From: Cercospora beticola | Lineage: Eukaryota > Ascomycota > Dothideomycetes > Mycosphaerellales > Mycosphaerellaceae | Reading direction: 5' to 3' | Assembly (NCBI RefSeq): GCF_033473495.1 | Contig: NC_088939.1 | Coordinates: 2,170,001 to 2,234,000, forward strand | DNA length: 64,000 bases | Shown: positions 48,785 to 64,000 of the stretch, piece by piece | Layout of the letters: the number at the start of each line of letters is the position of its first letter | How positions within the stretch are numbered: position 1 is the stretch's first letter | Program-made: the position numbers and the translations under genes | The notes under the pieces: generated by a model | Told to the model about the DNA's origin: nothing | The model's input: only the letters and a program-made list of their open reading frames with translations | Database searches by the model: none

Positions 48785-49538
48785 ATGGCCTCTTTCAAGG
48801 CAGCGCTGATTGTGGTGGACATGCAAGAGGACTTCTGCGAGCCAAACGGCTCACTTGCAGTCAAAGGGGGCAGAGAGGTCGCGTCTGTCGTCAACGATCT
48901 GCTGGATTGGCCCGGTTTCGTGATCAAGGTGGGCACGAAGGACTATCATCCTCAGGAGCACATTTCCTTTGCATCAAATCACCCAGGCACTCAGCCGTTC
49001 ACGTCGTCACATACCATTACCAGCCCGGAGAATGCGTCGGAATCGCAAACTACGTGAGTCAGATGCTACAAGTTTACAGCACGGCAGCGCGTCCTTTGAA
49101 CGCTGACGTTATTACAGGCTGCTCTGGCCGGATCATTGCGTCCAAGGCACATCGGGCGCGGAATTCATCCCAGAGTTGCACAAGCACAAGCTGTCGGATG
49201 TCATCAGCAAAGGTGAAGATCCACGCGTGGAATCCTACTCTGGATTTGGTCCTCCATTTCGAAGTCCGAGGGTCAGTATGAGCAACCTCGATGCCACGTT
49301 GAAGAATGCAGGCACCACCCACGTGTTCGTGGTTGGTCTGGCCCATGATTTTTGCGTCAAGTCTACAGCAATTGACGCCGTCGAGCATGGTTATGAAGTC
49401 TTCGTAATTGAGGAAGGTACAAAAGCTGTTATGCAAGACGAGATGAGCCTGTCCAAGACTCGCACTGAACTGCGAGAGGCGGGAGTTCAATCCATCTCTC
49501 TCGATGCGCAGGTCCTGAAGAACCTCAGCGCTGCCTGA
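48785..49538 (+). CDS. PNC1: Nicotinamidase (Pnc1-like, isochorismatase superfamily)
   Basis: Two exons, 48785-49053 and 49118-49538, with a 64-nt intron (GTGAGT...TTACAG), give 229 residues. The enzyme deamidates nicotinamide to nicotinate for NAD salvage and keeps sirtuins free of inhibition. Motifs: ALIVVDMQEDFCEPNGSL with the catalytic Asp, TKDYHPQEHISFASNH with metal-binding His/Asp, LWPDHCVQGTSGAEF (created across the splice), and GLAHDFCVKSTAIDA with the nucleophilic Cys. The size agrees with the fungal enzyme. The start at 48785 (MASFKAAL) directly precedes the conserved strand. Probably cytosolic/nuclear. Confidence 0.94.
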
Positions 49539-50521: not shown

Positions 50522-51161
50522 ATGAAGTTCTCTCTCATCGCCCTTGCTGCTGTTGCAGTCGCCAGCCCAATGGCCCTTGAGACTCGCCAAGGCGGTCTCC
50601 TGTCCCTTGCTAGCCTCGGTGGCGGCTCCTCTAAGGGAGGCTACGGAGGCGGCTATGGTGGCGGCAACAACGGTGGCAACAATGGGGGAAACAACGGCGG
50701 AAACAATGGGGGAAACAACGGAGGTAACAACGGCGGCGAGAATGGTGGGGAGAACGGCGGTGAGAATGGTGGTGAGAACGGTGGCGAGAATGGAGGCGAC
50801 AACAACGGTGGCAACAACGGTGGCAACAATGGTGGCAATGGAGGTGGCCAAGCAATGGTCTGCCCAAGCGGCTACTTCGCCCAATGCTGCGCGACCAACG
50901 TCCTTGGTTTGGCTGGCCTGAGCTGTGGCAATGGTAAATCCTCACATTGCATTGACTGATACAAGCTTCCATACTGACATTTGAACAGTCCCCAACACCA
51001 TCACCTCCCAGAGGAACTTCGTCGGACAGTGCGCTGCTACCGGCACAACTGCTGCTTGCTGTCTGATTCCACTTGTAAGTCTCAATCCCTTCTCCAACGC
51101 CGCATCTCGCAGGCTAACATTTCTCCAGGCCGGCCAAGGTGTCATCTGCAACGAAATCTAG
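50522..51161 (+). CDS. Class II hydrophobin with Gly/Asn tetrapeptide-repeat domain
   Basis: Three exons, 50522-50933, 50989-51074 and 51129-51161 (introns 55 and 54 nt), encode 176 residues. A signal peptide of about 15 residues is followed by MALETRQ, then a Gly-rich run and about 15 tetrapeptide units (GGNN, GGEN, GGDN; residues 49-108). The hydrophobin core starts at Cys114. The eight cysteines are at 114, 122/123, 135, 152, 161/162 and 173, spacing C-x7-CC-x11-C-x16-C-x8-CC-x10-C. All but the first interval match class II; the first is shorter than the usual 9-10. CCATNVLGLAGLSC and CLIPLAGQGVIC are typical class II wording. Hydrophobins self-assemble at interfaces and coat hyphae. Splicing is needed to obtain the last four Cys. 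Its position beside the exopolysaccharide cluster is notable. Confidence 0.93.
50666..50845 (+). repeat. 12-bp coding minisatellite in the hydrophobin gene
   Basis: About 15 tandem 12-bp units of the type GGNAAYAAYGGN / GGNGARAAYGGN, encoding the GGNN and GGEN tetrapeptides. The block of Glu-containing units (residues 72-92) is flanked on both sides by Asn-only units, as if expanded from an internal variant. Length is likely to vary between strains. Confidence 0.85.
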
Positions 51162-51578: not shown

Positions 51579-54094
51579 TTATGCCCTCACAGGAACTGGC
51601 GTAGCAAGAGTATAAGTCTGCGTGCTGCCACTCAAGGTAACCCACTTGATCAAAGGCTCTGAGCCCAGTTTATCATCAGTCGCACTTGCACCACTTGCTG
51701 CACCCGGGAACGTCACAGGAATTGGTGCCGAGCAGGAGTTCCCCTTCGCAGAGACAGTGACACCCGTAATGCGTGATCCATCCTGATTGTAGCGATAGAC
51801 CAGGTTGGGTTCGCATTGCTCTCTTGCCATGCGCTGCAGGAACTTTTGAGCGATGTCATCGTGCTTCAATGTGACGATCGGCCAGTTTGTCAAACGCGCC
51901 ATTTCTTGCGTGACAATTTCGACCCAAATTTGGACGAGAGACATCTGCCGTGTCTGGGAGCCCACAGTCGCGACAGGCAGGTCGTGGACACGCATGTTGG
52001 CTTGATGGAACATGTAAAGGTCATGATGAAGACCCATGAGATAGCGAGTGGTGATGCTCTTTTCTGATTCCATTAGATCGGTGAATGAGCCAGTTCCGCC
52101 AAAGAGATCAGTCCATTCCTTGGTGGTGCAGTCTGGAGTATCGCAGTCGTAGTAGATCTTTGTTGGCCAGCGTGGCAGAATTACCATGCCGTCGAAGCCG
52201 TTGTTGGCTGTCGTGGAAATGAGTGGCAACATGTCAGATTTAGTGTTGCGCAGGACAGGACGGGAGTTATCGCCTACGGCAGATATGATACCATTGTCTG
52301 CCCACGCGCGCATCGCATCGCCGTTGTGTAGACCGGTGATGGCGGGCGGGATGAGGCCTCCCGGAGAGTAGTTCTTTGCTTTGGAAATACCAAGCTGCTC
52401 CATCCAGACCTTGTTGAAGAGGATCTCTTTGTAGATGTCATCATAAGTGGCGTTGTTCTGATGAAGATGGGTGAACGTATGAGAGACGTGTGCGAAGTGG
52501 TCACGATTGATGGGATCCATGAACCACTCTGCGAGGGCATCCTTCGATGCACAAGCCACGGTCCAAGTGTAATTCGTGGGTGTTGTGGGCCACACCGATT
52601 TACCAGTGCCCAGTGGCTTCTGATACTCAAGCGCCGTGCTGTCATTCGGGATATAATAGATGGCAGTATTAGGTTTGCAGACAGCGCCATTATTGGTTCC
52701 ATTTGTGGCAGCAATGATGTCTCCGTTACCATTATGGCCGAGCTCCAGGAAGAAGTTTGACCCAGCTGGCAGGCGAGAATTGAGGTCGTCTTGCCATTCA
52801 GCATGCATCCTGTAGTCCTGAGGATCGCTACGATAGTAGTTATTCAGTGGCGAATACGTTTGCGTTCGCAAATGAACATCATCAATTTGGCCAGCAAGGT
52901 AAATCTTGCGAGCGCCGACGAACAGACCACGAGTCATCCAGTGTATGTAGGCATGTTGGAGGTAGGTCGAGGTTGCAGACCATTCTGAGGCCCAACCGGT
53001 GAAGAACACCATCTGCTGTCGCCCGTCAAAGTCGTTGATGACCGCGGCCGTGCTCTTGCTGCTGAACTTGCCGTCAGAGGAAGGGCCGAAGCTTGCAATC
53101 TCCCAAGTTGTCTTCGGGTCAGTGATCTGTGCCGGATAGTGCCAGATAGCCTTTGTACTCATACCCGCATCAGTTTTGACATTGGCAGTGGAGAAACCAC
53201 TGGTATTGGTGAAACTGATTTGCTGCTCGACGTTGTAGTCACAGCAGCCTCCGCTAGTGCCGAGTGATACAGCGCCGAAGGCCGACCAAGGGTATGTGTC
53301 TAGTCTTGTCATCCGAACGCCAAATGCCTTCTGATAATTGTAGATGGCAGTGAATTGGGCATCTGTGAGACCGCTCACCCAATTTCCAGCCGAGTTCTGG
53401 TAAGACAGCTCGCTCACAATGATGAAGCCCCCATAGTTGCCTTCCGTCGCAGAAGAATTGAGTGTTGGCAGCGAAACGCCAGATTGAGGGACTAGGAGGA
53501 CCTCATAAGGGATTCCATAGCCTTGGAAACCGGAGTAGGCAAGCTCGGCATCAATGGAGTTGCGAGCTAAGACTAAGATAGTGTTCTTGACGGTCTGACC
53601 ACCGACAGTGGCATTCTGCGAAGGCGTCAAAGACGGTCCACTGGAGGTTGCAGATGAACTTGAACTGGCAATTACAGATGAACTTGAGCTGGTAGTTGCA
53701 GACCTGGTGCTAGAGGTTCTGCTCGGGGTTAGCCGATCTGAGGTCCATTACGTAGAGGTGACTGTGTGAAGGGTTTGGGGTGAGCTTACCGTGTGCTGGA
53801 TGTCCTGGTAGTGCTCGATCTAGTTGTCGATACCAGGCCGGTAGACCGGCAGTTACAGGCAAATGTGGCGGAAGGCTGAAGAGTCGTGGTTATGGTGGTG
53901 ATTCCGCTTCGCGATGTTGAGCGAAGAGAATTTGTCGGAGAGACGCATCCGCAACCATATCGAGTATTCGATGCTGTGAGGGTAGTCGAGGTGGATGTGG
54001 TCCTGACGGTTGTCGTTCTGGTCGTCGTAGTCCTCTGTCCTTCAGCCACGCCTGCCGAAAGTATGGCGAGGTGTAACAGCCGATTGATCAGCAT
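51579..54094 (-). CDS. agd3: Agd3-type extracellular polysaccharide deacetylase
   Basis: Two exons, 54094-53790 and 53718-51579, with a 71-nt intron (GTAAGC...GAGCAG), encode 814 residues. A signal peptide (MLINRLLHLAILSAGVAEG) precedes a Thr/Ser-rich, probably O-glycosylated linker to about residue 130. The large catalytic part follows: NTILVLARNSIDAELAYSGFQGYGIPYE, the YDVEQQ-like CCDYNVEQQISF, AGQIDDVHLRT, and the metal-binding-type HVSHTFTHLHQNNATYDDIYKEI. This layout is that of Agd3, the CE18 enzyme that partly deacetylates galactosaminogalactan outside the cell and makes it cationic and adhesive. Older annotation calls such proteins extracellular serine-rich proteins. Its neighbours (epimerase, spherulin-4, Gt4c) support the assignment. 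Confidence 0.9.
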
Positions 54095-56120
54095 GATGGC
54101 AGTTGCAGGATAGCGAACATCTACGATAGACGCTCGATGTGTGATTCACCGCGCGTCTTCGTAGCAATGCGTATATTCTGCAACGAGGGACTGATGGCCT
54201 GGAAACGTGGTGGGAAACAGCGAAGGAAGACATCCCTCGTGCCCGGCCTTTGACGGGCTCATGGCTGAGGAATCTGTGGCGCGGAGACAAGAATTTTTCG
54301 GCATCTCTCGGACCTGCTCGCAGGAGTGTTGACAAAAAACTGAAAGGCAAAGCCAGGAATAGTGACAATGGGCATGGAGGAAACCCCTTCGTGGCGGACT
54401 CAATAAAGTGTGCGCGGGGCTTATCCACTCCCAGAAGTGCTGACAATCAGCTGCGCGTTCTTCAGCTAAATGCGTTTGATCCGCATGTTGGTAGCAGTGG
54501 GGATCTCGATGGTCCAGTGGATCAGGCTAGAAGTGTCTGGCTCGTGTCGATGGGCGAGATCTATTGCCTGAGGCCAACAATTGACTTTTGATCGATATGA
54601 AAGCGGTTGCTTCAAGCTCTACCAAAATTTGTGGACCACTCGGCTCAGCGCGGAATTTTGAGTATCACAGCTCGTACTCGTACGACCAAGCGGAGAAGCG
54701 CAGTACGGTCGTCTTCACATGGGAGAGTCTCGGATCTGTGGGACTGTTTCGTTGATGTTGGTGTACCAGGAGTAGTCTCCCCTTTTTGACAAGTCCATTG
54801 ATCAACGGCAGATACTCTTCACCGTGCGAGTTGAGCTCAACTAAAATGAGTTGTTCCGCCGGTCTTGTTGCTCTCATCGAGATAGTCGAAAGAACTGCGT
54901 CATTCAGCTGAACTTGAGATAGCTGAGATTCCGATTCAAACGCGACGCGTGTTGGCGATCCAAACGGTATGTTGACCCTGTACATAGCAGACTTCGAAAC
55001 CGGAAGCAGAAGCGGGCCAGTTTTCAAAGACATCATCAGCGATCGTATGAGCGTCCGAAACAGGCAGAGCAAATGGTTCGAGGATCTGCTACATTACTCG
55101 GAAGTGGTAATGCATTTTACGCCTGTTTGGGAAGCCTTGCATCGTGCGATAGTAGGTGAAAATGGTCATGGCAAGGCTCAACAGGCTTGAATATGCAAGC
55201 ACCGTTCATGATGAGGCGAAGGTCGACGCCTCACAGCTTTGGTCTTTCACCTTCGACCGGCTCAAGGGCCGAACCACCGTTTGGTGTCGGTATTGCGCAA
55301 GCTCATAGGCACTAGCACTAGGAGGATTACTAGCTTCGAATTCGTTGCCAAAAGCGGAGCGAGGTGAAGCTGGCGTTGAGTCTGTCGTCGTGCGCAGGGC
55401 CAGCTCGCTCCCACATATGGCGAGTGAACAGATCAGGGTCTGAATCTTTGATAGTGGTGCCAAAGACATAGAAAAACTCGCTCATTTGGAATCCAGAGTA
55501 TTGTCCAGCCAATATACATTGCGTCTCAGAATAGCATCAATAGATTGACCTTCATTGCATTCTGACGAGCAATCTCAATCCCATGCAAGCGTGAGGGCAG
55601 CCAGCTCAAAGGGATTGACTGACGATAGCACACTCGTGAATGACGGTAGATGGCCCTTGCAGCGAAAATCTGCTTCTCCGGTAGGATACAGAGCCCAAAT
55701 GTTCCAGGAGTGAGTGCCCTTCCGGCGAGGACAGTTGATGGGAGCTACTGCATGGCGTCGGATATGCCCAAGTGCGGAAGAAGGACCACAGAGGTGCTTC
55801 GTCCGCTCTGGACCCTCATATGCCGTTCTCCAGCAGAAGTTGACGGGGACCGAGCAGATCTAGAATCGAGACCCTCGTCCAGTCAGTCGGCACAGCCTCT
55901 CGGACCTTGCGATTGAATTGGAAATGGTGAAGGAACGGAGATCGTCCAGCGTTGATGTCTGGCCCTGAATGTTCGGCCTTTTGGCGATTTGCCACAGGAG
56001 AGATCGTTGTTAAGTAGTGTAGTCTTCTTCGTTCTCTCGAGCTGGCATCGGGCCAGCGAAGTACTCATTTCCACATCGCTGAGCACGGAGCATAATCATC
56101 GACTAGACAGCAACGACATC
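54095..56120. other. Divergent region between agd3 and the epimerase gene
   Basis: Two kilobases carrying the agd3 and epimerase promoters. It also holds a coding-like minus-strand frame (54665-55036, listed separately) and a short one at 55330-55485 starting MSEFFYVFGTTIKDSD. I found no GH114 (ega3-like) motif in any frame. Confidence 0.5.
54665..55036 (-). CDS. Possible hypothetical protein within the exopolysaccharide cluster (123 aa)
   Basis: An ATG-started frame of 123 codons with normal codon use. The product reads SLKTGPLLLPVSKSAMYRVN at the start, has a mixed alpha/beta look in the middle (EQLILVELNSHGEEYLPLINGL), and ends TTVLRFSAWSYEYEL. No signal peptide and no recognised family. 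A second small frame on the same strand 300 bp upstream (55330-55485) may belong to the same decayed or spliced gene, but I could not connect them with valid splice sites. It could be a relic. Confidence 0.35.
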   Translation of the reverse strand: MMSLKTGPLLLPVSKSAMYRVNIPFGSPTRVAFESESQLSQVQLNDAVLSTISMRATRPAEQLILVELNSHGEEYLPLINGLVKKGRLLLVHQHQRNSPTDPRLSHVKTTVLRFSAWSYEYEL

Positions 56121-57449
56121 ATGCCGGCCACATTACGATCGGTCTCTTCCAGTTCATCTTTGCTGTCACTAGACAGCTTGGACAGCGGCGGGCACTCCAC
56201 AGCGTTCTCATCAAGGCCCAATACTCCGGGATTCGCTCTTACAGAGAGCTTTGACTATTTCTCGCCGCAGGTTCTTCAAGCAGTCGAGCCAGTCCAGGAA
56301 CAACTTCCGGCCCATGACAACAAGCAGTATGTCATGGTGGTCGGCGGCCTCGGATACATTGGATCGCATACCACACTCGAGCTCCTCCAAGAAGGCTACA
56401 ATGTCATTGTGGTAGATGACCTTTCCAATTCGTATGTTAATGTCCTGGACCGAATAAAGCTCCTTTCCAAGGACTACTGTCACCAGAGGGGGCTGGTCGC
56501 TCCAACGCTACGGTTCCATAAACTGGATTACCGAACTTCCGCGATGAAGCATGTGTTCAACATGTATGAGGCCTGTCAGTCTAAGATCACCGGAGTCATC
56601 CACTTCGCGGCTTTCAAGTCGGTGTCGGAGTCCATCGAGAAACCGCTTGCTTATTACAAAAACAATATCGCGGGTCTCATTGATCTTCTCGAGATAGTGC
56701 AGCTGAATGGCATCAAGAACTTCGTGTTCTCTTCTTCTGCCACAGTATATGGCGGCAAAGCCAATCTTGGAAAGCCGCTTCGAGAAGATGATCTCGTGCA
56801 TTTCGACGAGAAATACACAGAAGAGGATGGTTTGGAGCGCGTGCGGGCCAACGGCATCACTGGCATCACCAATCCATATGGACGAACCAAATACATGGCC
56901 GAGGCCATTCTCGCTGATGTCGCCAAGTCCGATCCCTCAATGCGAATCACAGCTCTGCGGTATTTCAATCCCGTGGGCTGCCATGCATCAGGTCTCTTGC
57001 GAGAGAACCCTCGTATGAAAGCGACAAATCTGTTCCCTGTGATTGCCGAAGCAATGACTGGCCTGCGACCAGCGCTCTACATCTACGGAAGCGACTGGGA
57101 CACTCGCGATGGAACGGCTGTGCGAGACTTCATTCACGTCGTCGATCTCGGACAAGGGCACATTGCGGCAGTCGCAGCCGCAAACGATCCGCATCGACAA
57201 GAGTCCTTCAGAGCTTTCAACTTGGGCACAGGTTGTGGAATGACCGTTGCTGAGTGTGTCTCGGCGCTCGAGAAGGCCAGCGGCAAGAAGGTACCAGCTC
57301 AAATGGCGCCGAGGAGAGCCGGAGACGTTGGGAGCTGTGTTGCTGCGACTGCGCTAGCGGAGCGAGATCTTGGATGGAGAACGCAGAAGACTGTCGATGA
57401 CTGCGCGGTGGATCTGTGGAATGCATTGAGTCTGGTTGGCAAAGTCTAG
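56121..57449 (+). CDS. uge3: Uge3-type UDP-glucose/GlcNAc 4-epimerase
   Basis: 442 residues, single exon. Residues 1-67 form a Ser-rich extension (SVSSSSSLLSLDSLDSGG). The extended-SDR epimerase domain then starts with VMVVGGLGYIGSHT (NAD site, about 71-84). The catalytic Ser/Thr lies in FSSSATVYGG and the Tyr/Lys pair in NPYGRTKYMAEA, and GTAVRDFIHVVDLGQGH is diagnostic of GalE-type enzymes. It interconverts UDP-Glc/UDP-Gal and, in the Uge3 subgroup, UDP-GlcNAc/UDP-GalNAc, supplying both sugars of galactosaminogalactan. Assignment to Uge3 rather than the housekeeping Uge5/Gal10 group rests on the neighbouring agd3, sph3 and gt4c. The start at 56121 was chosen because the upstream 44 codons are leader-like. 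Confidence 0.88.
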   Translation: MPATLRSVSSSSSLLSLDSLDSGGHSTAFSSRPNTPGFALTESFDYFSPQVLQAVEPVQEQLPAHDNKQYVMVVGGLGYIGSHTTLELLQEGYNVIVVDDLSNSYVNVLDRIKLLSKDYCHQRGLVAPTLRFHKLDYRTSAMKHVFNMYEACQSKITGVIHFAAFKSVSESIEKPLAYYKNNIAGLIDLLEIVQLNGIKNFVFSSSATVYGGKANLGKPLREDDLVHFDEKYTEEDGLERVRANGITGITNPYGRTKYMAEAILADVAKSDPSMRITALRYFNPVGCHASGLLRENPRMKATNLFPVIAEAMTGLRPALYIYGSDWDTRDGTAVRDFIHVVDLGQGHIAAVAAANDPHRQESFRAFNLGTGCGMTVAECVSALEKASGKKVPAQMAPRRAGDVGSCVAATALAERDLGWRTQKTVDDCAVDLWNALSLVGKV

Positions 57450-57941
57450 GTGCAACTTTCAATGGAACAACCTTCTCGTGATCGCCGCCTGGGCGGTTTA
57501 GCGTAACGACCTTTTCGAATTAGGATGAACATAGATGACATAGAAATGAAGCGATGCCAGATGATCATTGGCAAAAACTGCTCCAATCGCTTGTTGAGCT
57601 CCGCATTATCTTTGACCATGCTGTATTCTGACAGTCGAGTGACCATTAGTGGGCTAACGCTTCGCTCGCGCAAGGCACTGTGGATTGTTGGCCCAGGAAG
57701 CCTGCTCAGTACCAAGGTAGAAATGCGCGGCATATCGGGCTTTCGGCATTTGGCACCAAATGCATCAGGCAAACTGTCTCGCAGACGGTTGCCGATGCTG
57801 AGATTGTGCAATTGTGTTCGAGACGCACATGCAGCGCCTTCCTTCGCCAAGGCCAGATCGAACAGTCTGGCGAAGTTCAAATTGTGTCGCCAAGCAAGGG
57901 TTCGAAGAAAGGAACATCATGGTCGTGCTCCAACGAGTTGT
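57450..57941. other. Convergent 3' spacer
   Basis: 3' regions of the epimerase gene and the first spherulin-4 gene. Long openings seen here on the plus strand are shadows or non-coding. No gene seen. Confidence 0.5.
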
Positions 57942-58843
57942 TCAATCGGTCGACATGGCATCGATGAAGTCCTTGAAACCGGCGCCAAATTGCTCGTAAA
58001 ACCGCTCGTTGGAGTCTGTGACGAAGACATATTGTGCTCGCTTCCGAACCTCGTGGGTAACATCCTTGACCCGATCTATCGGCACCGAGTGCACCATGTA
58101 GCAAGCATGTTGCCGAGAGTATTCGATCAGGTCATTGTCGTCAGTTCGATCGGATCCCATCAGTCGTGCGTATGAATTTTCGAATACCGCTGTGCTGTCC
58201 GGCCGTTTGCTGGTGAGTTGAGGATCTGGTAGCGTGCCAGGGTTGTGAACGATCTACAAACCATGTAAGTCTCAAGCCGAGGTCCATTTCTAGAAGGTAT
58301 GAGGTCGCACCAATTTGCTGCCGAATATGCCATCAGCGGACTTCACATCATGGTTGATCTTTTGCAAGAATGTGGTCTTGAACTGTGAAGATTCGTTGGG
58401 TGTTTCGTCGAAGAAGATGCCCGAGACGTGCAGACCTTTCACGCCAAAATCATGTGGCCACTTCGCATAACGTCGAATGTCTTCCAAGACTTCGCTGACG
58501 TCTCGATTGCAGTAGTCAGTCCTGACATAGCCGAGTGTGGTGCAGTTGGGTCTTGCGTTGAGCTTGGGTACTTCGCGCAAATAGTCCAGATTGGGCCACC
58601 ATGGGGATTCGCCTGGGCCGCTATTGGGGTTGACAACGACAACGAAGTCGAGTGATGGATTCTCGTCGATTCTGAGGAAGCTAGTCAGCGTTATTGTGCA
58701 AGCTGTCTGCGCCCGTGGTCTCACGCGTCATAAAGTGGCTGCCATGTCGTAGAGTTGGTTGGATAGATGTACAAGGGGACGATGCATGTGGATTGTGGCG
58801 ATTTGGTGCTTCCGGACCTCTTGAATCTCGAGAAGAGCCCCAT
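57942..58843 (-). CDS. Spherulin-4 family protein, soluble paralogue of Sph3
   Basis: Three exons, 58843-58725, 58671-58311 and 58253-57942, with introns of 53 and 57 nt, encode 263 residues. The GH135/spherulin-4 domain covers nearly all of it: STCIVPLYIYPTNSTTWQPLYDA, LDFVVVVNPNSGPGE, CTTLGYVRTDY, then GIFFDET with the acidic pair that is catalytic in Sph3, IVHNPGT, and a later acidic residue in AVFENSY. Unlike the adjacent copy it has no membrane anchor and no clear signal peptide. Its N-terminus MGLFSRFKRSG is short and basic, with MG at position 1-2 (a myristoylation-type start is possible but weak). Intron 1 and the last intron fall at the same domain positions as in the next gene, supporting tandem duplication. 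Its role beside Sph3 is unknown. Confidence 0.87.
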
Positions 58844-58985
58844 GGCAGACTTAGGGGGCTCGTCAGATTTGTAGGAATGCCGTGGAAGATTGTTGTTGTT
58901 ATTGTCTAAGTTCGAGGAGGAGGAAGTAGCTAAGGCTATTTCCAGCCACTGGGAGCCACTAACATCCACGATCGGCATCAGCCTC

Positions 58986-60058
58986 CTACCGCGTGGCTGC
59001 GCTTGCGTTTGTGGGCACTGCATCAACAAACTTCTGCCAATTCTTCCCGAAGCTGCTATAATAATTTTTCTTGTTGCTCGTCACGAACAAATAACCAGCA
59101 TGGTAGCTCAGCTCTGGTACGAACTGCTTGAGATCCGCGGGGCCTGCCGAGTGCACGATAAACGCGCTGGAAGTCCGGTTGAAAGGCGATTCCTGCAGTG
59201 ACGCGTCCATCTTGTGGAACTCCTTCAGCGACTGCTCAAAGGTCACGGTGATATCGGTGTTGTTGGTGTTTAGGCGCGCATCAGGCAAGATGCCCGGATT
59301 ATGGATGACCTGCGATGGGATGAGCGGATGTTGCGTTGATGATCGGGGCAGAAGTGGATGAAAGACTGACCGTGCGAGGTTCGCGAATGCCTGTCGAATT
59401 CTTGGCAAACTGATTGATGATGTACAGATGCTCGACATTTTCTGGCGAATACTCATACGCTGCCTCATCGAAAAAGATGCCGTGCATCGCCAGACTCGAA
59501 TGGACATCGGCCCACTGAGCGTACGTTTCGATGTCCTGCACAATTTCCATCACGGGTCGAGTGCCATAGCCCGTACCTGCATCCATGCTCAGTACACGCG
59601 CCGCAAACGATTTCACGCGTCAAACTCACGGACATAGCCTACTGTCTGCACATTTGAGTAATTATTGAGCTTCTGTATTCCTGGAGAGAACTCGGCGCCA
59701 GGCGCTGTGCTCATTCCGCCAGGACCGCTATCTGGATTGATAATCACAATGAAGTCCAGGTTGGAGTTCGATTCGATGCTACGAATTATCAGACTCCATC
59801 GCTGATGGCACTTTATGACACAGATACAACTCACGCTGAGTACAGAGGATCCCAGGCACTGTCCTCCGGAAACTCGTACAGAGGAAGCAACACCTTGGCA
59901 GGAAGTCCATCTGGATACTTGCGATTTTTCCTGGACAACACCACAGCTGTTGGCACGATTATCAGGATCAGAATTGCCAATATGACCGCTATAAGGCAAC
60001 ACCACAGAGCCTTGGACCTCTTCCTCTGCCTGGACAGCAGATGTTGTGGAGACTGCAT
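58986..60058 (-). CDS. sph3: Sph3-type membrane-anchored spherulin-4 glycoside hydrolase (GH135)
   Basis: Four exons, 60058-59835, 59778-59630, 59576-59371 and 59309-58986 (introns 56, 53 and 61 nt), encode 300 residues. A basic head (SRQRKRSK) precedes a transmembrane helix at about 18-41 (CLIAVILAILILIIVPTAVV), giving type II topology with the domain outside. The GH135 core shows VLLPLYEFPEDSAWDPLYSA, LDFIVIINPDSGPGG, VQTVGYVR, HGIFFDEA with the catalytic Asp/Glu pair, VIHNPGILPD, and VTFEQSLKEF with a further conserved Glu. In Aspergillus, Sph3 is an endo-acting hydrolase of galactosaminogalactan required for its production. Divergent from gt4c across a 618-bp promoter region and in tandem with the soluble paralogue downstream. 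Confidence 0.9.
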
Positions 60059-60676
60059 TTCGGGCCAGATTCAGGTATGTGCTGTGCTGGAATTCTTCTT
60101 CGACCGGGAGTAAACCATGGCATTCAAGGAGCAACAGCGAAATCAGACATGCAGTTCTCGATGTATAGACTCACTATTCCCCAAGAAAGAGCTTTGGGGT
60201 TTTGACAAGCCAAGACTACATTCGCGCGTCAGTTCGCGTGCCCTTGACAGCAATTGAATGGTCTATCTTCAAACCAGACACAGGCTGATCTAGTCTACAA
60301 ATCGAGGATCGTGAGTATGCGAAAAATGGAACATCTCGATCTAAGCGATTCGCATAAAGCCAGCAGCACGCAGCAACCTGCGACCCACGGCTCGGGAGCT
60401 CCGGAAGAACATTAGACTCATGTAGTGCCATTGGCTACCTCCCATTGCACCATTGCCCGACATGCACACGACAGTAGTCCAGATCACTCGTAATACGAGT
60501 CTGGTCGCATTCGAATGGCGGGATCTATATGCTGAAAGTGGATCAAACTCGATTTGCTCGATTGACTCGATGAAACCATCGTTCAACGTGTCTGCGTATC
60601 ACAGGAGCTATGGGCGACGCTCGGCTTTGTATGATGCAACGATGGACGAGCTGCGACTGAGCACGATCGACTGGCA
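60059..60676. promoter_or_regulatory. Shared divergent promoter region, sph3 and gt4c
   Basis: 618 bp separate the two start codons, transcribed away from each other, so regulation is probably shared. One TCGCGTGC (60234-60241) fits the WCGCGWNM consensus of StuA, which controls the Aspergillus galactosaminogalactan genes. A single match in this length could be chance. No gene seen. Confidence 0.45.
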
Positions 60677-63600
60677 ATGTCAGGAGCGGCGGCCGAGCAG
60701 TTGAGCTCAGGTGGAAAGCGGACAAGCTCTGCATTACGCGTTTTCCTCGACAGGCACGAGCACGAGCAGCTGGGACTCGCATTCGCTCTGCTAGTGCTGC
60801 CATCTGTACATCTCTTGTGTGGCAGCAGCAGCACGGCAGCAGATGAGATTGTGCTGTCGCCACTGCTCGCGATGAGGGCCGAGTACATAGGACTGTCAGC
60901 CGTTGGCTGGCACGTGATGACTGGCAGTTGGTTCGATATCGTGAGTAGGATGACCAAGTGATAGAAATGCATGTGCTGACACCTGGCAGATACTTGCTGG
61001 GCTCGCACTCTTCGGTGTCCTGTCTGGTCTACTATATCTTTCCGCGGTACTGCTTATCAAAGTCCACGACAGGCGGAAGGCTCTTCGAGGGCGAGTACGA
61101 AAAGTGCCGCGAGGGGTTACAGAATTTCTTGATAGCTTGAAGAGCAAGGGACAATCAATCTCTGCAGATGCGCGCAGTGAACAGGAACCCAAAACATTCG
61201 GTGTATATCTTGGCAGTTTTGCAACACCACCGACCCAGCAAGAAACAGCCGTTCTGAGGAAATGGGACATCGTCGTGCTGGATCCTGCCCAAAATGGTGT
61301 GCTTGACGCTGCGGCTTCTCACTGCACCTCTGTCCAGACCCTTGGGAGGCTCGATGTGCAATCGGTGGTCGGAAAGCAAACAGCAAAGACAAAAGAAGCG
61401 TTTGTGCCGGCACTTAAAACCATCACAGACTTCGTATCGTCACGATTTCGGGGTTCAAACCGAATGTACTCTCCGATGACAGGCATATTGCTTGCGAATT
61501 GGCAATCGAAGCTGCCTCCAGTCATTTGCCAGGAGTTGATCAGGTACCTGAGAAGTCTCAACTTTGATGTATACCTTGAGCTTTCCGAGCCTGAATATCT
61601 CACTGATGATGAATGTCGGCATATTGGCATGGACTTGATCAAAGGGTTGATCTGTAGGAATGGCACGATACTGCGAAATGGTGATCGCAGAGACTACTAT
61701 CAGATGTCCAACCTGCGTCGTGCGCAACGAGCGCTGGCCAAGCACATGTCTCTTGGAGGTATCGTGTTCGCCATGTGGGAGACTTTGGACGATATGGAGA
61801 CACTCTCACATTCAGTCGCGAACAGGAGCTATCTGTGGTGCCGGTTCAATACCGCGCTCAGCTGGATCGGGTCCGAAAAGGCGCTCATTGACACATATGC
61901 TGCCCAGAAAGAAACTCTGGCAGGCTTGCCACTTGGCGCGCTGATGTGGATGAAGGGCTGGGAAGTCATGATCATGCACGATACATGGAGGCTTAATGAC
62001 ACTATTGTCCAGAACTCCTGCCATGATAATGATGCCTTCGCAATAATAGAAGACTATGTGCCAGGGATTGGCAAGATGCTTGAGCTCCACCAGACTGAAA
62101 CTCCAGAGCAGCCAAAAGGCAGACCACTGTCTATCACTGACGCTGGCTTTCCGATCGGGGACCTGCAATATAATCTCAAGAACGATGCCCTTTCGTTCTC
62201 CCCCGAAGGAGAAGACTACACGGGTCTTGGCTGCTTTCAGACCGGTCTGCCGGCTTCCCAGGAAGTCTTCGATATGCTTCGAGATGGTCAGCGCAAGCTT
62301 CGAGATTTGAACATGCTCGACCGACTGGGTGCCGAAGCACTGCAAGAGATTGGAACAAAGTTGAGGCCACTCTTAGAGCTCAGTGAGCAGTTCAAAGACT
62401 TTGATGGCATGGCTGACGCCGTTGAAGAGCTACTCAATTTGCTCGCTGTGAGCGATGGACAGGATACTGACCGGTTGCGCATATACATGGGCATACATTC
62501 TGGCTTCCACAGGAACACTAGCGAGCAATTTTGGGGTCTCTATGACAATGGAATGTTCTCCAACACTGAGCGGAGAGGAAGTCATCCAGGGTACCTGGAT
62601 CTATTCATTTCGTTGCGTGCTAGTGATCGAGCACTTGCCATTCTCCACACCTGGCTGTCAATAAAGCGCTTCTCAAGGACACAATGCCTCAAAGCTGAGT
62701 GGCTCCTGTACGAGCGTGGCCGGCTATTGGATGAGAGATGGGAGTTGCCGAAGAGAATGGTTGATGATATCGTTGGCCTTACTTCCCAAGAACTAATATT
62801 GCTGTTGCAAAGGCTAACCCTCTCCAGCGATGCGGCTTCTGCGGGACTGTGCGCAAGAATGGCAAAACTCTGCCGACATCAGCTTATGGCTATCCCGACT
62901 CGAGATCAACTCAGAAAGCAAAACACTGAGCAGTACCTACGTGGTGAAATCAGTACAGCAGATCTGATAAAGAACCGACTTGCTTGGTACAGAGATCAAG
63001 GCTGTCATGCTCCAGAGTACAGCGCCGCACTCCAAGTGTTTGAAACAATGGATCGCCTTTTACCAAAGGCGCTCATGGATCAAGACGATGGCTTCGTGGA
63101 ACGAATTGAGACAATCCTATCCAAGACCATCAAGAAACAAGGCATCGATGCCGCAGTCGACATTTTCGCACTTTCAGTATTCTGCGCGTATCGAAGACTG
63201 GCCCTCGAAGAGATCTACCTGGAAGTGCTGGATCGCAATCCCTTACCTAATCGACATCCGGACCAAGCAGCATGCTTTGCCGAAATGTTCGGAACAGGCT
63301 CTCAATGCGAGACTTACCTGGATATGACCTCGAATGTGTTGGGCCGTATATTGGCAGACAAGTATCAGGCCTACTACACAAAGCATCAACCGGCAGCACG
63401 TAAAGATGGTAGCAGTGAGCTGCCGACGTCCTATGCTTCCAAGTCTGTTGATGAGGATCCGGACGCACAACGACCAACGCTACCAATCTACTACCAGATT
63501 ACCTTCCTCGGCATATTCGCCGTGCCGGCATTGTTTGATATCATGATGTTGACAATTCTCGGGCGTGGTCTGTACCTCAGCAACTACATGGCGGAGAGCG

Positions 63601-64000
63601 AGAAGATCATGGCGACAGCTGGTCTGATGTCCGGCCTCCTGCTCTGCGGCGGGATTGGAACCTGGATCGGCTATGGAGGAAGCTACTACCTCCATGCAAT
63701 GTCATTCCCAGCCATGAACATGTTCGTGCTTACTAGGTTCGTGGCTGGAGTCGCCCTGCTTTCCATAATCGGCTTGGTTGCATTCATCACTATTGGCATT
63801 GCACGCAGCTGGTACGACGGCTTCATCTTCGTATTCTACTTTGCCGCACTGGATACCTATCTCACCATTCTGGCGACTTTGGCTATCTATCAGTTTCCAG
63901 GCTTCATGTTCCAGTCTGGACGGAACACAGTCGTTATGTGTCTGCCAATCCTGCTCATCTCACCTATCCTGACTCTGTGGGTTCATAAAGACATCGTCAT
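60677..64000 (+). CDS. gt4c: Gt4c-type giant membrane glycosyltransferase, 5' part
   Basis: Runs off the right edge. Exon 1 is 60677-60940 (88 codons), the intron is 49 nt (GTGAGT...TGGCAG with CTGAC branch), and exon 2 continues past 64000, so about 1091 residues are visible. Hydrophobic segments lie near residues 33-50 and 89-112. From about 158 a barrel-like opening appears (FGVYLGSF, then WDIVVLDPAQNGVLDA), resembling GH114-type polysaccharide-acting domains. A long soluble helical region occupies about 480-900. From about 922 a chain of membrane helices begins (ITFLGIFAVPALFDIMMLTI; GLMSGLLLCGGIGTWIGYGGS; FVAGVALLSIIGLVAFITIGI; TVVMCLPILLISPILTLWV), reminiscent of PelG-like transporters. 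The GT4 catalytic domain expected in Gt4c would be beyond the window. It is proposed to polymerise and export galactosaminogalactan; cluster context is the main support. Confidence 0.82.

What the first reader, a model, noticed from the sequence alone, without database searches (positions are those of the whole stretch)
51579..64000. Galactosaminogalactan-type exopolysaccharide cluster with altered gene content
Seen: agd3-like deacetylase, uge3-like epimerase, two spherulin-4 genes and a gt4c-like giant membrane protein lie together. Known: in Aspergillus, uge3, sph3, ega3, agd3 and gt4c form the GAG cluster that makes a cationic adhesive polymer. Inferred: this fungus can make a GAG-like polymer, but with a duplicated spherulin gene and no separate ega3 between agd3 and gt4c. 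Cluster order also differs, with two divergent promoter pairs.
Basis: partly seen in the sequence, partly recalled or inferred. Interest (0 to 1): 0.75.

Follow-up and report, generated by a model that had tools for sequence, protein, structure and literature searches.

The report
Fungal adhesive-sugar cluster with cytosolic hydrolase
A leaf-spot fungus carries the known gene set for a sticky cell-surface sugar polymer, but its extra "spherulin" gene is not a recent copy: it belongs to an old, overlooked branch of the polymer-cutting enzyme family that lacks any export signal and so probably works inside the cell, where the polymer is made.

Summary
The gene content is confirmed. At window 51579-64000 (on to C5:2239384) Cercospora beticola has agd3, uge3, two GH135 genes and a 2870-aa GT4 synthase, in two divergent pairs. 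No GH114 (ega3) lies in the cluster; two lie elsewhere. It is a variant of the galactosaminogalactan (GAG) cluster. Order changes are already known in other fungi.

"Duplicated spherulin" is wrong, and that is where the interest lies. sphA has a membrane anchor; sphB belongs to a separate clade (98/96) spanning four classes of Pezizomycotina. Recent duplication is rejected (lnL 97.6 lower). Hydrophobic leaders: sphA group 47 of 49 evaluable, sphB clade 0 of 33; the sphB clade keeps the catalytic acids in 46 of 46. Characterised Sph3 (A. clavatus) falls in neither group but beside sphB's. Linkage of sphB-type genes to the synthase or to an sphA-type gene recurs. I found no held paper describing this gene. 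Most likely it acts in the cytosol on nascent or aborted chain, or makes primers, as leaderless AmyG does for alpha-glucan; this is inferred.

The synthase also holds a barrel, probably cytosolic, whose nearest solved folds are GH191, PelA-hydrolase and Ega3. New variant of a known kind.

The parts
51579..54094 (-). agd3: CBM87 + CE18 deacetylase, 814 aa, one intron (53789-53719)
   Evidence: Pfam PF25115/PF25116/PF25117 and 6nwz E=1.2e-221; only Agd3_CE match in the genome
54095..56120 (.). divergent intergenic region agd3 / uge3 (2026 bp)
   Evidence: gene models; 0 StuA-type sites where 2.6 are expected (motif recalled)
56121..57449 (+). uge3-type UDP-hexose 4-epimerase, 442 aa, no intron
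   Evidence: paralogue of the genome's Gal10 type at C5:839508-840570
57942..58843 (-). sphB: leaderless GH135, 263 aa, two introns (58724-58672, 58310-58254)
   Evidence: Pfam Spherulin4 9.7e-78; 5d6t E=3.3e-51 with the FFDE and VFE acids kept; clade B
58844..58985 (.). 142-bp gap between the sphA stop and the sphB start; no room for a distant leader exon
   Evidence: gene models; the frame upstream of the ATG shows no long hydrophobic stretch by eye
58986..60058 (-). sphA: GH135 with N-terminal transmembrane helix (Sph3-like build), 300 aa, three introns
   Evidence: equals deposited 'Spherulin-4 [Cercospora beticola]' (P0177); group A
60059..60676 (.). divergent intergenic region sphA / synthase (618 bp)
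   Evidence: gene models; two overlapping StuA-type sites at 60232-60241 where 0.8 are expected (motif recalled)
60677..64000 (+). GAG synthase (Gtb3/Gt4c type), about residues 1-1091 of 2870; continues to C5:2239384, GT4 domain beyond the window
   Evidence: P0001 identical; one place in the genome for the last exon
61167..61961 (+). synthase domain 1: (beta/alpha)8 barrel of the GalNAc-polymer hydrolase fold, predicted cytosolic
62157..63440 (+). synthase domain 2: confident alpha/beta + helical region without a solved-fold match here

Best explanation
This is the galactosaminogalactan locus of Cercospora beticola. Shown from sequence: Uge3-type epimerase, giant GT4 membrane synthase, CE18 deacetylase, membrane-anchored GH135 (sphA) and a second GH135 (sphB) of an old, leaderless clade. 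Inferred: Uge3 makes UDP-Gal and UDP-GalNAc; the synthase polymerises and exports an alpha-1,4 GalNAc/Gal chain; sphA trims it as it leaves the membrane, as proposed for Sph3; Agd3 deacetylates it to a cationic adhesive. SphB stays in the cytosol, next to the synthase's cytosolic barrel and GT4 domains, and cuts acetylated chain there: either it supplies short primers, or it clears chains that are aborted or not exported. The two GH135 genes are thus an outside/inside pair.
For: Gene content. Separate groups: 151-row tree, B 46 rows (SH-aLRT 97), A 62 rows (90); careful trees, B one group at 96/87 (67 rows) and 98/96 (71 rows); local duplication rejected, lnL 97.6 lower. Leader: A 47 of 49 evaluable rows, B 0 of 33 (13 rows of each group not evaluable; 21 of the 33 have only 7-14 residues before the barrel). 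Glycosylation sequons in the barrel: A 1.65 times the shuffled expectation (62 rows), B 0.95 (43 of 46 rows); Cys mean 0.35 v 3.74. Catalytic positions in B: 46 of 46 for each of three acids. Only 142 bp between sphA stop and sphB start. Recurrent linkage: C. zeina g6822/g6823/g6824 (sphB/sphA/synthase), Saxophila LTR77_004681/004682 (A/B), A. hancockii BBP40_007713/007714 (B/synthase), seven deposited 490-522-aa 'fusions' of an A and a B domain, two of them on contigs of the same length as a synthase contig. sphB is as conserved as the synthase: to C. zeina 90% v 83% (sphA) v 87% (synthase). Precedent: AmyG, an intracellular amylase, is proposed to supply maltose for alpha-glucan synthesis (PMC8592254, abstract and passages).
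Against: No expression, localisation or enzyme data. The window's own sphB has 3 sequons against 2.0 expected, so the sequon argument holds for the clade, not this gene alone. Absence of a leader was judged by hydropathy, not by a trained predictor, and for other species from deposited gene models. Unconventional secretion is not excluded. A. clavatus Sph3, the enzyme actually studied, sits on B's side of the tree, not A's, and scores slightly better against sphB than sphA (177.5 v 158.3 bits); so sphA is Sph3-like by its anchor, not shown to be its orthologue, and sphB might be thought a Sph3 that lost its anchor. The clusters in print for A. fumigatus, A. oryzae, N. crassa, M. robertsii and V. 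dahliae list one GH135 each, so sphB is not needed for GAG everywhere. Linkage in other species rests on locus tags or equal contig lengths typed for 90 of 191 GH135 hits, not on their DNA. The direction of leader gain or loss is not settled: the rows near Sph3 are mixed.
Confidence: 0.6

Rival explanations
1. SphB leaves the cell without a classical leader and is a second extracellular trimming enzyme, partly standing in for the missing Ega3.
For: No ega3 in the cluster; deposited records call several clade-B proteins 'cell surface protein'; the window's gene has 3 sequons; the nearest characterised relative on B's side of the tree, A. clavatus Sph3, belongs to an enzyme described as membrane-bound and extracellular in A. 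fumigatus (PMC12054363).
Against: 0 of 33 evaluable clade-B N-termini have a hydrophobic leader; sequons at chance and several Cys in clade B against enrichment and almost none in group A. Sph3 and Ega3 cut different (acetylated v deacetylated) stretches (PMC12054363), so replacement is unlikely. The 'cell surface' names look transferred.
Confidence: 0.2
2. SphB is a cytosolic catabolic enzyme that merely travels with the cluster: it digests GalNAc oligosaccharides taken up again from the matrix and has no part in synthesis.
For: Clade B occurs in many species for which linkage to a synthase was not seen here; several published clusters list one GH135 only.
Against: Repeated linkage in distant lineages and high conservation.
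Confidence: 0.2
3. SphB is a recent local copy of sphA.
For: The genes are adjacent and in tandem.
Against: 36% identity; separate groups across four classes; constrained tree rejected, lnL 97.6 lower.
Confidence: 0.01
4. The locus makes a GalNAc-type polymer that is not GAG proper (for example a nearly pure polygalactosamine).
For: Ega3 is absent from the cluster and no chemistry is known for this fungus (no paper found).
Against: The epimerase has the Cys of human GALE at the gatekeeper position, fitting both UDP-Gal and UDP-GalNAc (role of the residue recalled); the synthase matches Aspergillus synthases over nearly its whole length, e.g. A. niger P0023 at 48% over 96%.
Confidence: 0.1

Closest known systems
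Five-gene GAG cluster of Aspergillus fumigatus (uge3, sph3, ega3, agd3, gtb3/gt4c)
   Same: uge3, a membrane-anchored GH135, agd3 and the giant GT4 synthase are present and adjacent
Neurospora crassa NCU05132-05137 GAG cluster (PMC11356417)
   Same: Synthase next to the epimerase gene by number, deacetylase, a GH135
   Different: N. crassa keeps GH114-1 in the cluster and lists one GH135; here reversed: no GH114, two GH135
Sph3 (GH135; 5d6t/5c5g)
   Same: Family and the three acidic positions, kept in both sphA and sphB
   Different: Sph3 groups with P0130, P0235 and P0249, beside clade B; sphB lacks an anchor and has the clade's YC-motif Cys (43 of 46 in B, 0 of 62 in A)
AmyG, intracellular alpha-amylase of alpha-glucan synthesis in A. 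nidulans (PMC8592254)
   Same: Intracellular hydrolase needed for a wall polymer made at the membrane; proposed primer supply
   Different: GH13_5 and glucan, tested by deletion and rescue; sphB is GH135 and untested
PelA hydrolase domain (GH166), GH191 and Ega3 (GH114)
   Different: No sequence-level match to GH114 (Pfam none at E 10, hhalign none); residue at the end of strand 4 is not a conserved Asp

Membership tests
Canonical five-gene GAG cluster | Uge3-type 4-epimerase in the cluster | tested here: met
   Pfam Epimerase 9e-40, solved GALE relatives, Cys at the GALE position
Canonical five-gene GAG cluster | Giant transmembrane GT4 synthase (Gtb3/Gt4c) | tested here: met
   2870 aa, 48% over 96% to A. 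niger P0023, Glyco_trans_1_4 9.1e-13
Canonical five-gene GAG cluster | Agd3 deacetylase (CBM87 + CE18) with DD and HxxxH motifs | tested here: met
   Pfam domains and 6nwz; 'QIDDVH' and 'HVSHTFTH' aligned with 6nwz (motifs from PMC4817252)
Canonical five-gene GAG cluster | GH135 with a membrane anchor | tested here: met
   sphA, TM 17-35, 5d6t E=2.4e-45
Canonical five-gene GAG cluster | That GH135 in the same clade as characterised Sph3 | tested here: not met
   A. clavatus Sph3 lies across a 99/95 branch from group A, nearest to P0130, P0235, P0249
Canonical five-gene GAG cluster | Ega3 (GH114) in the cluster | tested here: not met
   GH114 matches only on C3 and C1
Canonical five-gene GAG cluster | Co-regulation of the genes | not testable with these tools
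   no expression data
GH135 (Sph3 family), for sphB | Spherulin4 domain with the catalytic acids | tested here: met
   PF12138 9.7e-78; three acids kept
GH135 (Sph3 family), for sphB | Hydrolysis of acetylated alpha-1,4 GalNAc polymer | not testable with these tools
   needs an assay
GH114 / GH166 / GH191, for the synthase barrel | Recognisable sequence profile of one of these families | tested here: inconclusive
   GH114: no Pfam hit at E up to 10 and no hhalign match to a profile of two GH114 genes; GH166 and GH191 profiles were not tried
GH114 / GH166 / GH191, for the synthase barrel | Fold | tested here: met
   [not shown]
GH114 / GH166 / GH191, for the synthase barrel | Asp nucleophile and Glu acid/base | tested here: inconclusive
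   end of strand 4 is A/S then N/G/D (D in 5 of 36); end of strand 6 is R-N, but an acid stands at 208 in 30 of 36; strand positions of the pair recalled, no residue-level structure alignment
AmyG-type primer supply | Product rescues polymer synthesis in the deletion mutant | not testable with these tools
   analogy only

The most novel reading that the evidence does not exclude
GAG synthesis has an unrecognised cytosolic arm: an ancient leaderless GH135 that makes the alpha-1,4-GalNAc primers (or edits chains) for a synthase which itself carries a pseudo-glycosidase barrel, of the same hydrolase fold, as a chain-holding domain on the cytosolic side. Clusters that lack the gene would have to prime in another way.
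Probability: 0.25. Interest if true: 0.8.

Novelty: new variant of a known kind. Interest (0 to 1): 0.6.

Why it matters
GAG is a main adhesin and biofilm polymer of filamentous fungi, and how its synthase starts, holds and exports a chain is not known. A conserved hydrolase without export signal beside that synthase, together with a hydrolase-like barrel inside the synthase, gives two concrete handles on that question. It also shows how annotation can hide the gene: seven deposited proteins join it to the neighbouring GH135, and no C. beticola protein turned up in the search with sphB.

Tried and rejected

Rows dropped: the first tree took 151 rows from 144 of 193 GH135 proteins (short domain coverage left out, P0177 left out as identical to the window's sphA, seven fusions cut in two); the second took 67 chosen rows, the third those plus A. 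clavatus Sph3 and three more, with the leader trimmed off.
Full report
What is there. The window lies at C5:2170001-2234000 of a 36.07-Mb, 10-contig genome. The sphA protein is identical to a deposited 'Spherulin-4 [Cercospora beticola]' on a contig of the same length, 5,177,381 bases, as C5, so the fungus is Cercospora beticola. From left to right the locus holds agd3 (minus), uge3 (plus), sphB (minus), sphA (minus) and the synthase (plus). Gene models were made by hand from frames and splice signals. Two of them, sphA and the synthase, equal deposited proteins in length with 100% identity. The synthase runs from 60677 to C5:2239384, 2870 aa in three exons; the GT4 domain is in the last exon, beyond the window.

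Membership of the GAG group. Agd3 has CBM87, the deacetylase domain and the C-terminal domain, and aligns over 668 residues with solved Agd3. The epimerase is 44% identical to the genome's own Gal10-type enzyme. In the alignment with human GALE it has Cys at the position of the GALE Cys, while the own Gal10 has Leu; that this position decides between Glc/Gal and GlcNAc/GalNAc substrates is recalled. Whole-genome searches gave one place each for the synthase's last exon and Agd3, and GH135 matches only in the two genes here. The feature of the five-gene cluster that fails outright is Ega3: GH114 matches occur only on C3 and C1. The C3 protein begins with a signal-peptide-like stretch and its nearest solved relative is Ega3, E=6.5e-49; the C1 frame also begins with a hydrophobic stretch; neither was put to a predictor. 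So I file the locus as a variant of the GAG cluster, not as the canonical five-gene cluster.

Known background. [quoted passage not shown] Order and orientation differ in Metarhizium (PMC8224951, passages). N. crassa has one GH135 and one GH114 in its cluster (PMC11356417, passages); Verticillium has five genes with one Sph and a 2856-aa synthase (PMC13245733, passages). A changed order is therefore not new.

The second spherulin. sphA has a transmembrane helix at residues 17-35 and sphB has none. I searched the public proteins with each (90 and 106 hits) and built a tree of 151 GH135 domains. The window's two proteins fall in two large groups. Group B (46 rows, SH-aLRT 97) holds sphB and proteins of Mycosphaerellales, Pleosporales, Aspergillus, Leotiomycetes, Xylariales and Metarhizium. 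Group A (62 rows, 90) holds sphA and membrane-anchored proteins of the same classes (class names from my knowledge of the genera). Careful trees give B as one group at 96/87 (67 rows) and 98/96 (71 rows). Forcing the Cercospora and Septoria A and B proteins together costs 97.6 log-likelihood units.

Where Sph3 itself falls. On checking, I added A. clavatus Sph3, the solved enzyme, to the tree. It is in neither group: it joins P0130, P0235 and P0249 (64%, 59% and 45% identical), and that set lies beside B, across a 99/95 branch from A. So sphA has the build of Sph3 but is not in its clade, and B's nearest characterised relative is Sph3. Of the rows around Sph3, P0235 has a hydrophobic N-terminal stretch, while P0130, P0144 and P0243 start at the barrel and P0249 has a hydrophilic start; loss of the anchor on the way to B is the simplest reading, but I do not call it settled.

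Leader, sequons and catalytic residues. Of N-termini that could be judged, 47 of 49 in A have a hydrophobic leader before the barrel and 0 of 33 in B; the two exceptions in A are P0197 and P0225. Thirteen rows in each group could not be judged, because they were truncated, lacked the motif or were C-terminal halves; 21 of the 33 B rows have only 7-14 residues before the barrel. Barrel sequons are 227 observed against 137.5 by shuffling in A (62 rows) and 46 against 48.2 in B (43 of 46 rows). Mean Cys counts are 0.35 and 3.74. The window's sphB by itself has 3 sequons against 2.0 expected, which does not help the argument. The three acidic positions are kept in 46 of 46 B rows; in A they are kept in 62, 60 and 62 of 62. 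These are the marks of a secreted and a cytosolic branch of one active enzyme family. In the window only 142 bp separate the sphA stop from the sphB start, so a distant leader exon is not available.

Linkage elsewhere. By locus tag: C. zeina BST61_g6822 (B), g6823 (A), g6824 (synthase); Saxophila tyrrhenica LTR77_004681 (A) and 004682 (B); A. hancockii BBP40_007713 (B) and 007714 (synthase); Cryoendolithus antarcticus B0A48_11454 (synthase) and 11456 (B); Naganishia friedmannii QFC21_006915 (B) and 006916 (synthase), the last a basidiomycete name, so transfer or contamination is possible (the truncated ones placed by best match). Seven deposited proteins of 490-522 aa are an A domain followed by a B domain; in six of them the B half lacks its start, in P0183 the A half does, as expected if annotation joined two neighbouring genes. 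None of this was checked on the DNA of those species.

Mechanism. Shown: gene content, relationship, lack of a hydrophobic leader, conserved catalytic residues. Inferred: SphB is cytosolic, active on acetylated chain, and tied to synthesis. The nearest precedent is AmyG, an intracellular amylase needed for alpha-glucan, whose loss is rescued by maltose (PMC8592254, abstract and passages). I give about 0.75 to a cytosolic place, about 0.35 to primer supply or chain editing as its task, with recovery of imported oligosaccharides as the main rival.

Novelty. A GAG cluster in a Dothideomycete is a new member of a known kind. The leaderless GH135 branch with recurrent linkage, and the hydrolase-fold barrel inside the synthase, were not found in the held papers. 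That library lacks most subscription journals, and Bamford 2015 was not read, so prior notice elsewhere is possible.

Noticed in passing
window 50522-51161 (+): Class II hydrophobin (PF06766, E=2.9e-19) of 176 aa with a long Gly/Asn/Glu repeat, lying tail to tail with agd3; another surface protein at the cluster's edge.
   Followed up: partly
window 61167-61961 (+): The GAG synthase carries a barrel with the fold of GH191/PelA/Ega3 hydrolases, apparently without the usual nucleophile.
   Followed up: yes
[not shown]
   Followed up: partly
A. clavatus Sph3 (5d6t), P0130, P0235, P0249: The characterised Sph3 belongs to a third GH135 group beside the leaderless clade, not to the widespread membrane-anchored group A: the anchored GH135 of GAG clusters may have two origins.
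   Followed up: partly
G000:C3:3690962-3691687 and G000:C1:3709657-3710520: Two unlinked GH114 genes, secreted-looking by their N-termini; the C3 one is nearest to Ega3 among solved structures.
   Followed up: partly
synthase homologues P0070-P0083: Several species have a second synthase-like protein (about 37-41% identical to the window's), beside a closer one, e.g. Microthyrium P0022/P0070, Diplocarpon rosae P0048/P0072.
   Followed up: no
P0018, P0119 (Naganishia friedmannii): A basidiomycete genome lists a synthase 51% identical to the window's and a clade-B GH135 next to it: transfer or contamination.
   Followed up: no
window 57942-58843 (-): The search with sphB returned no protein named C. 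beticola or identical to it, though sphA and the synthase were found; the gene may be missed or fused in the deposited annotation.
   Followed up: no
window 49107-49538 (+) and L006:1488-2933 (-): Outer neighbours: an isochorismatase-domain exon on the left and an RNA polymerase III Rpc34 subunit gene on the right.
   Followed up: no
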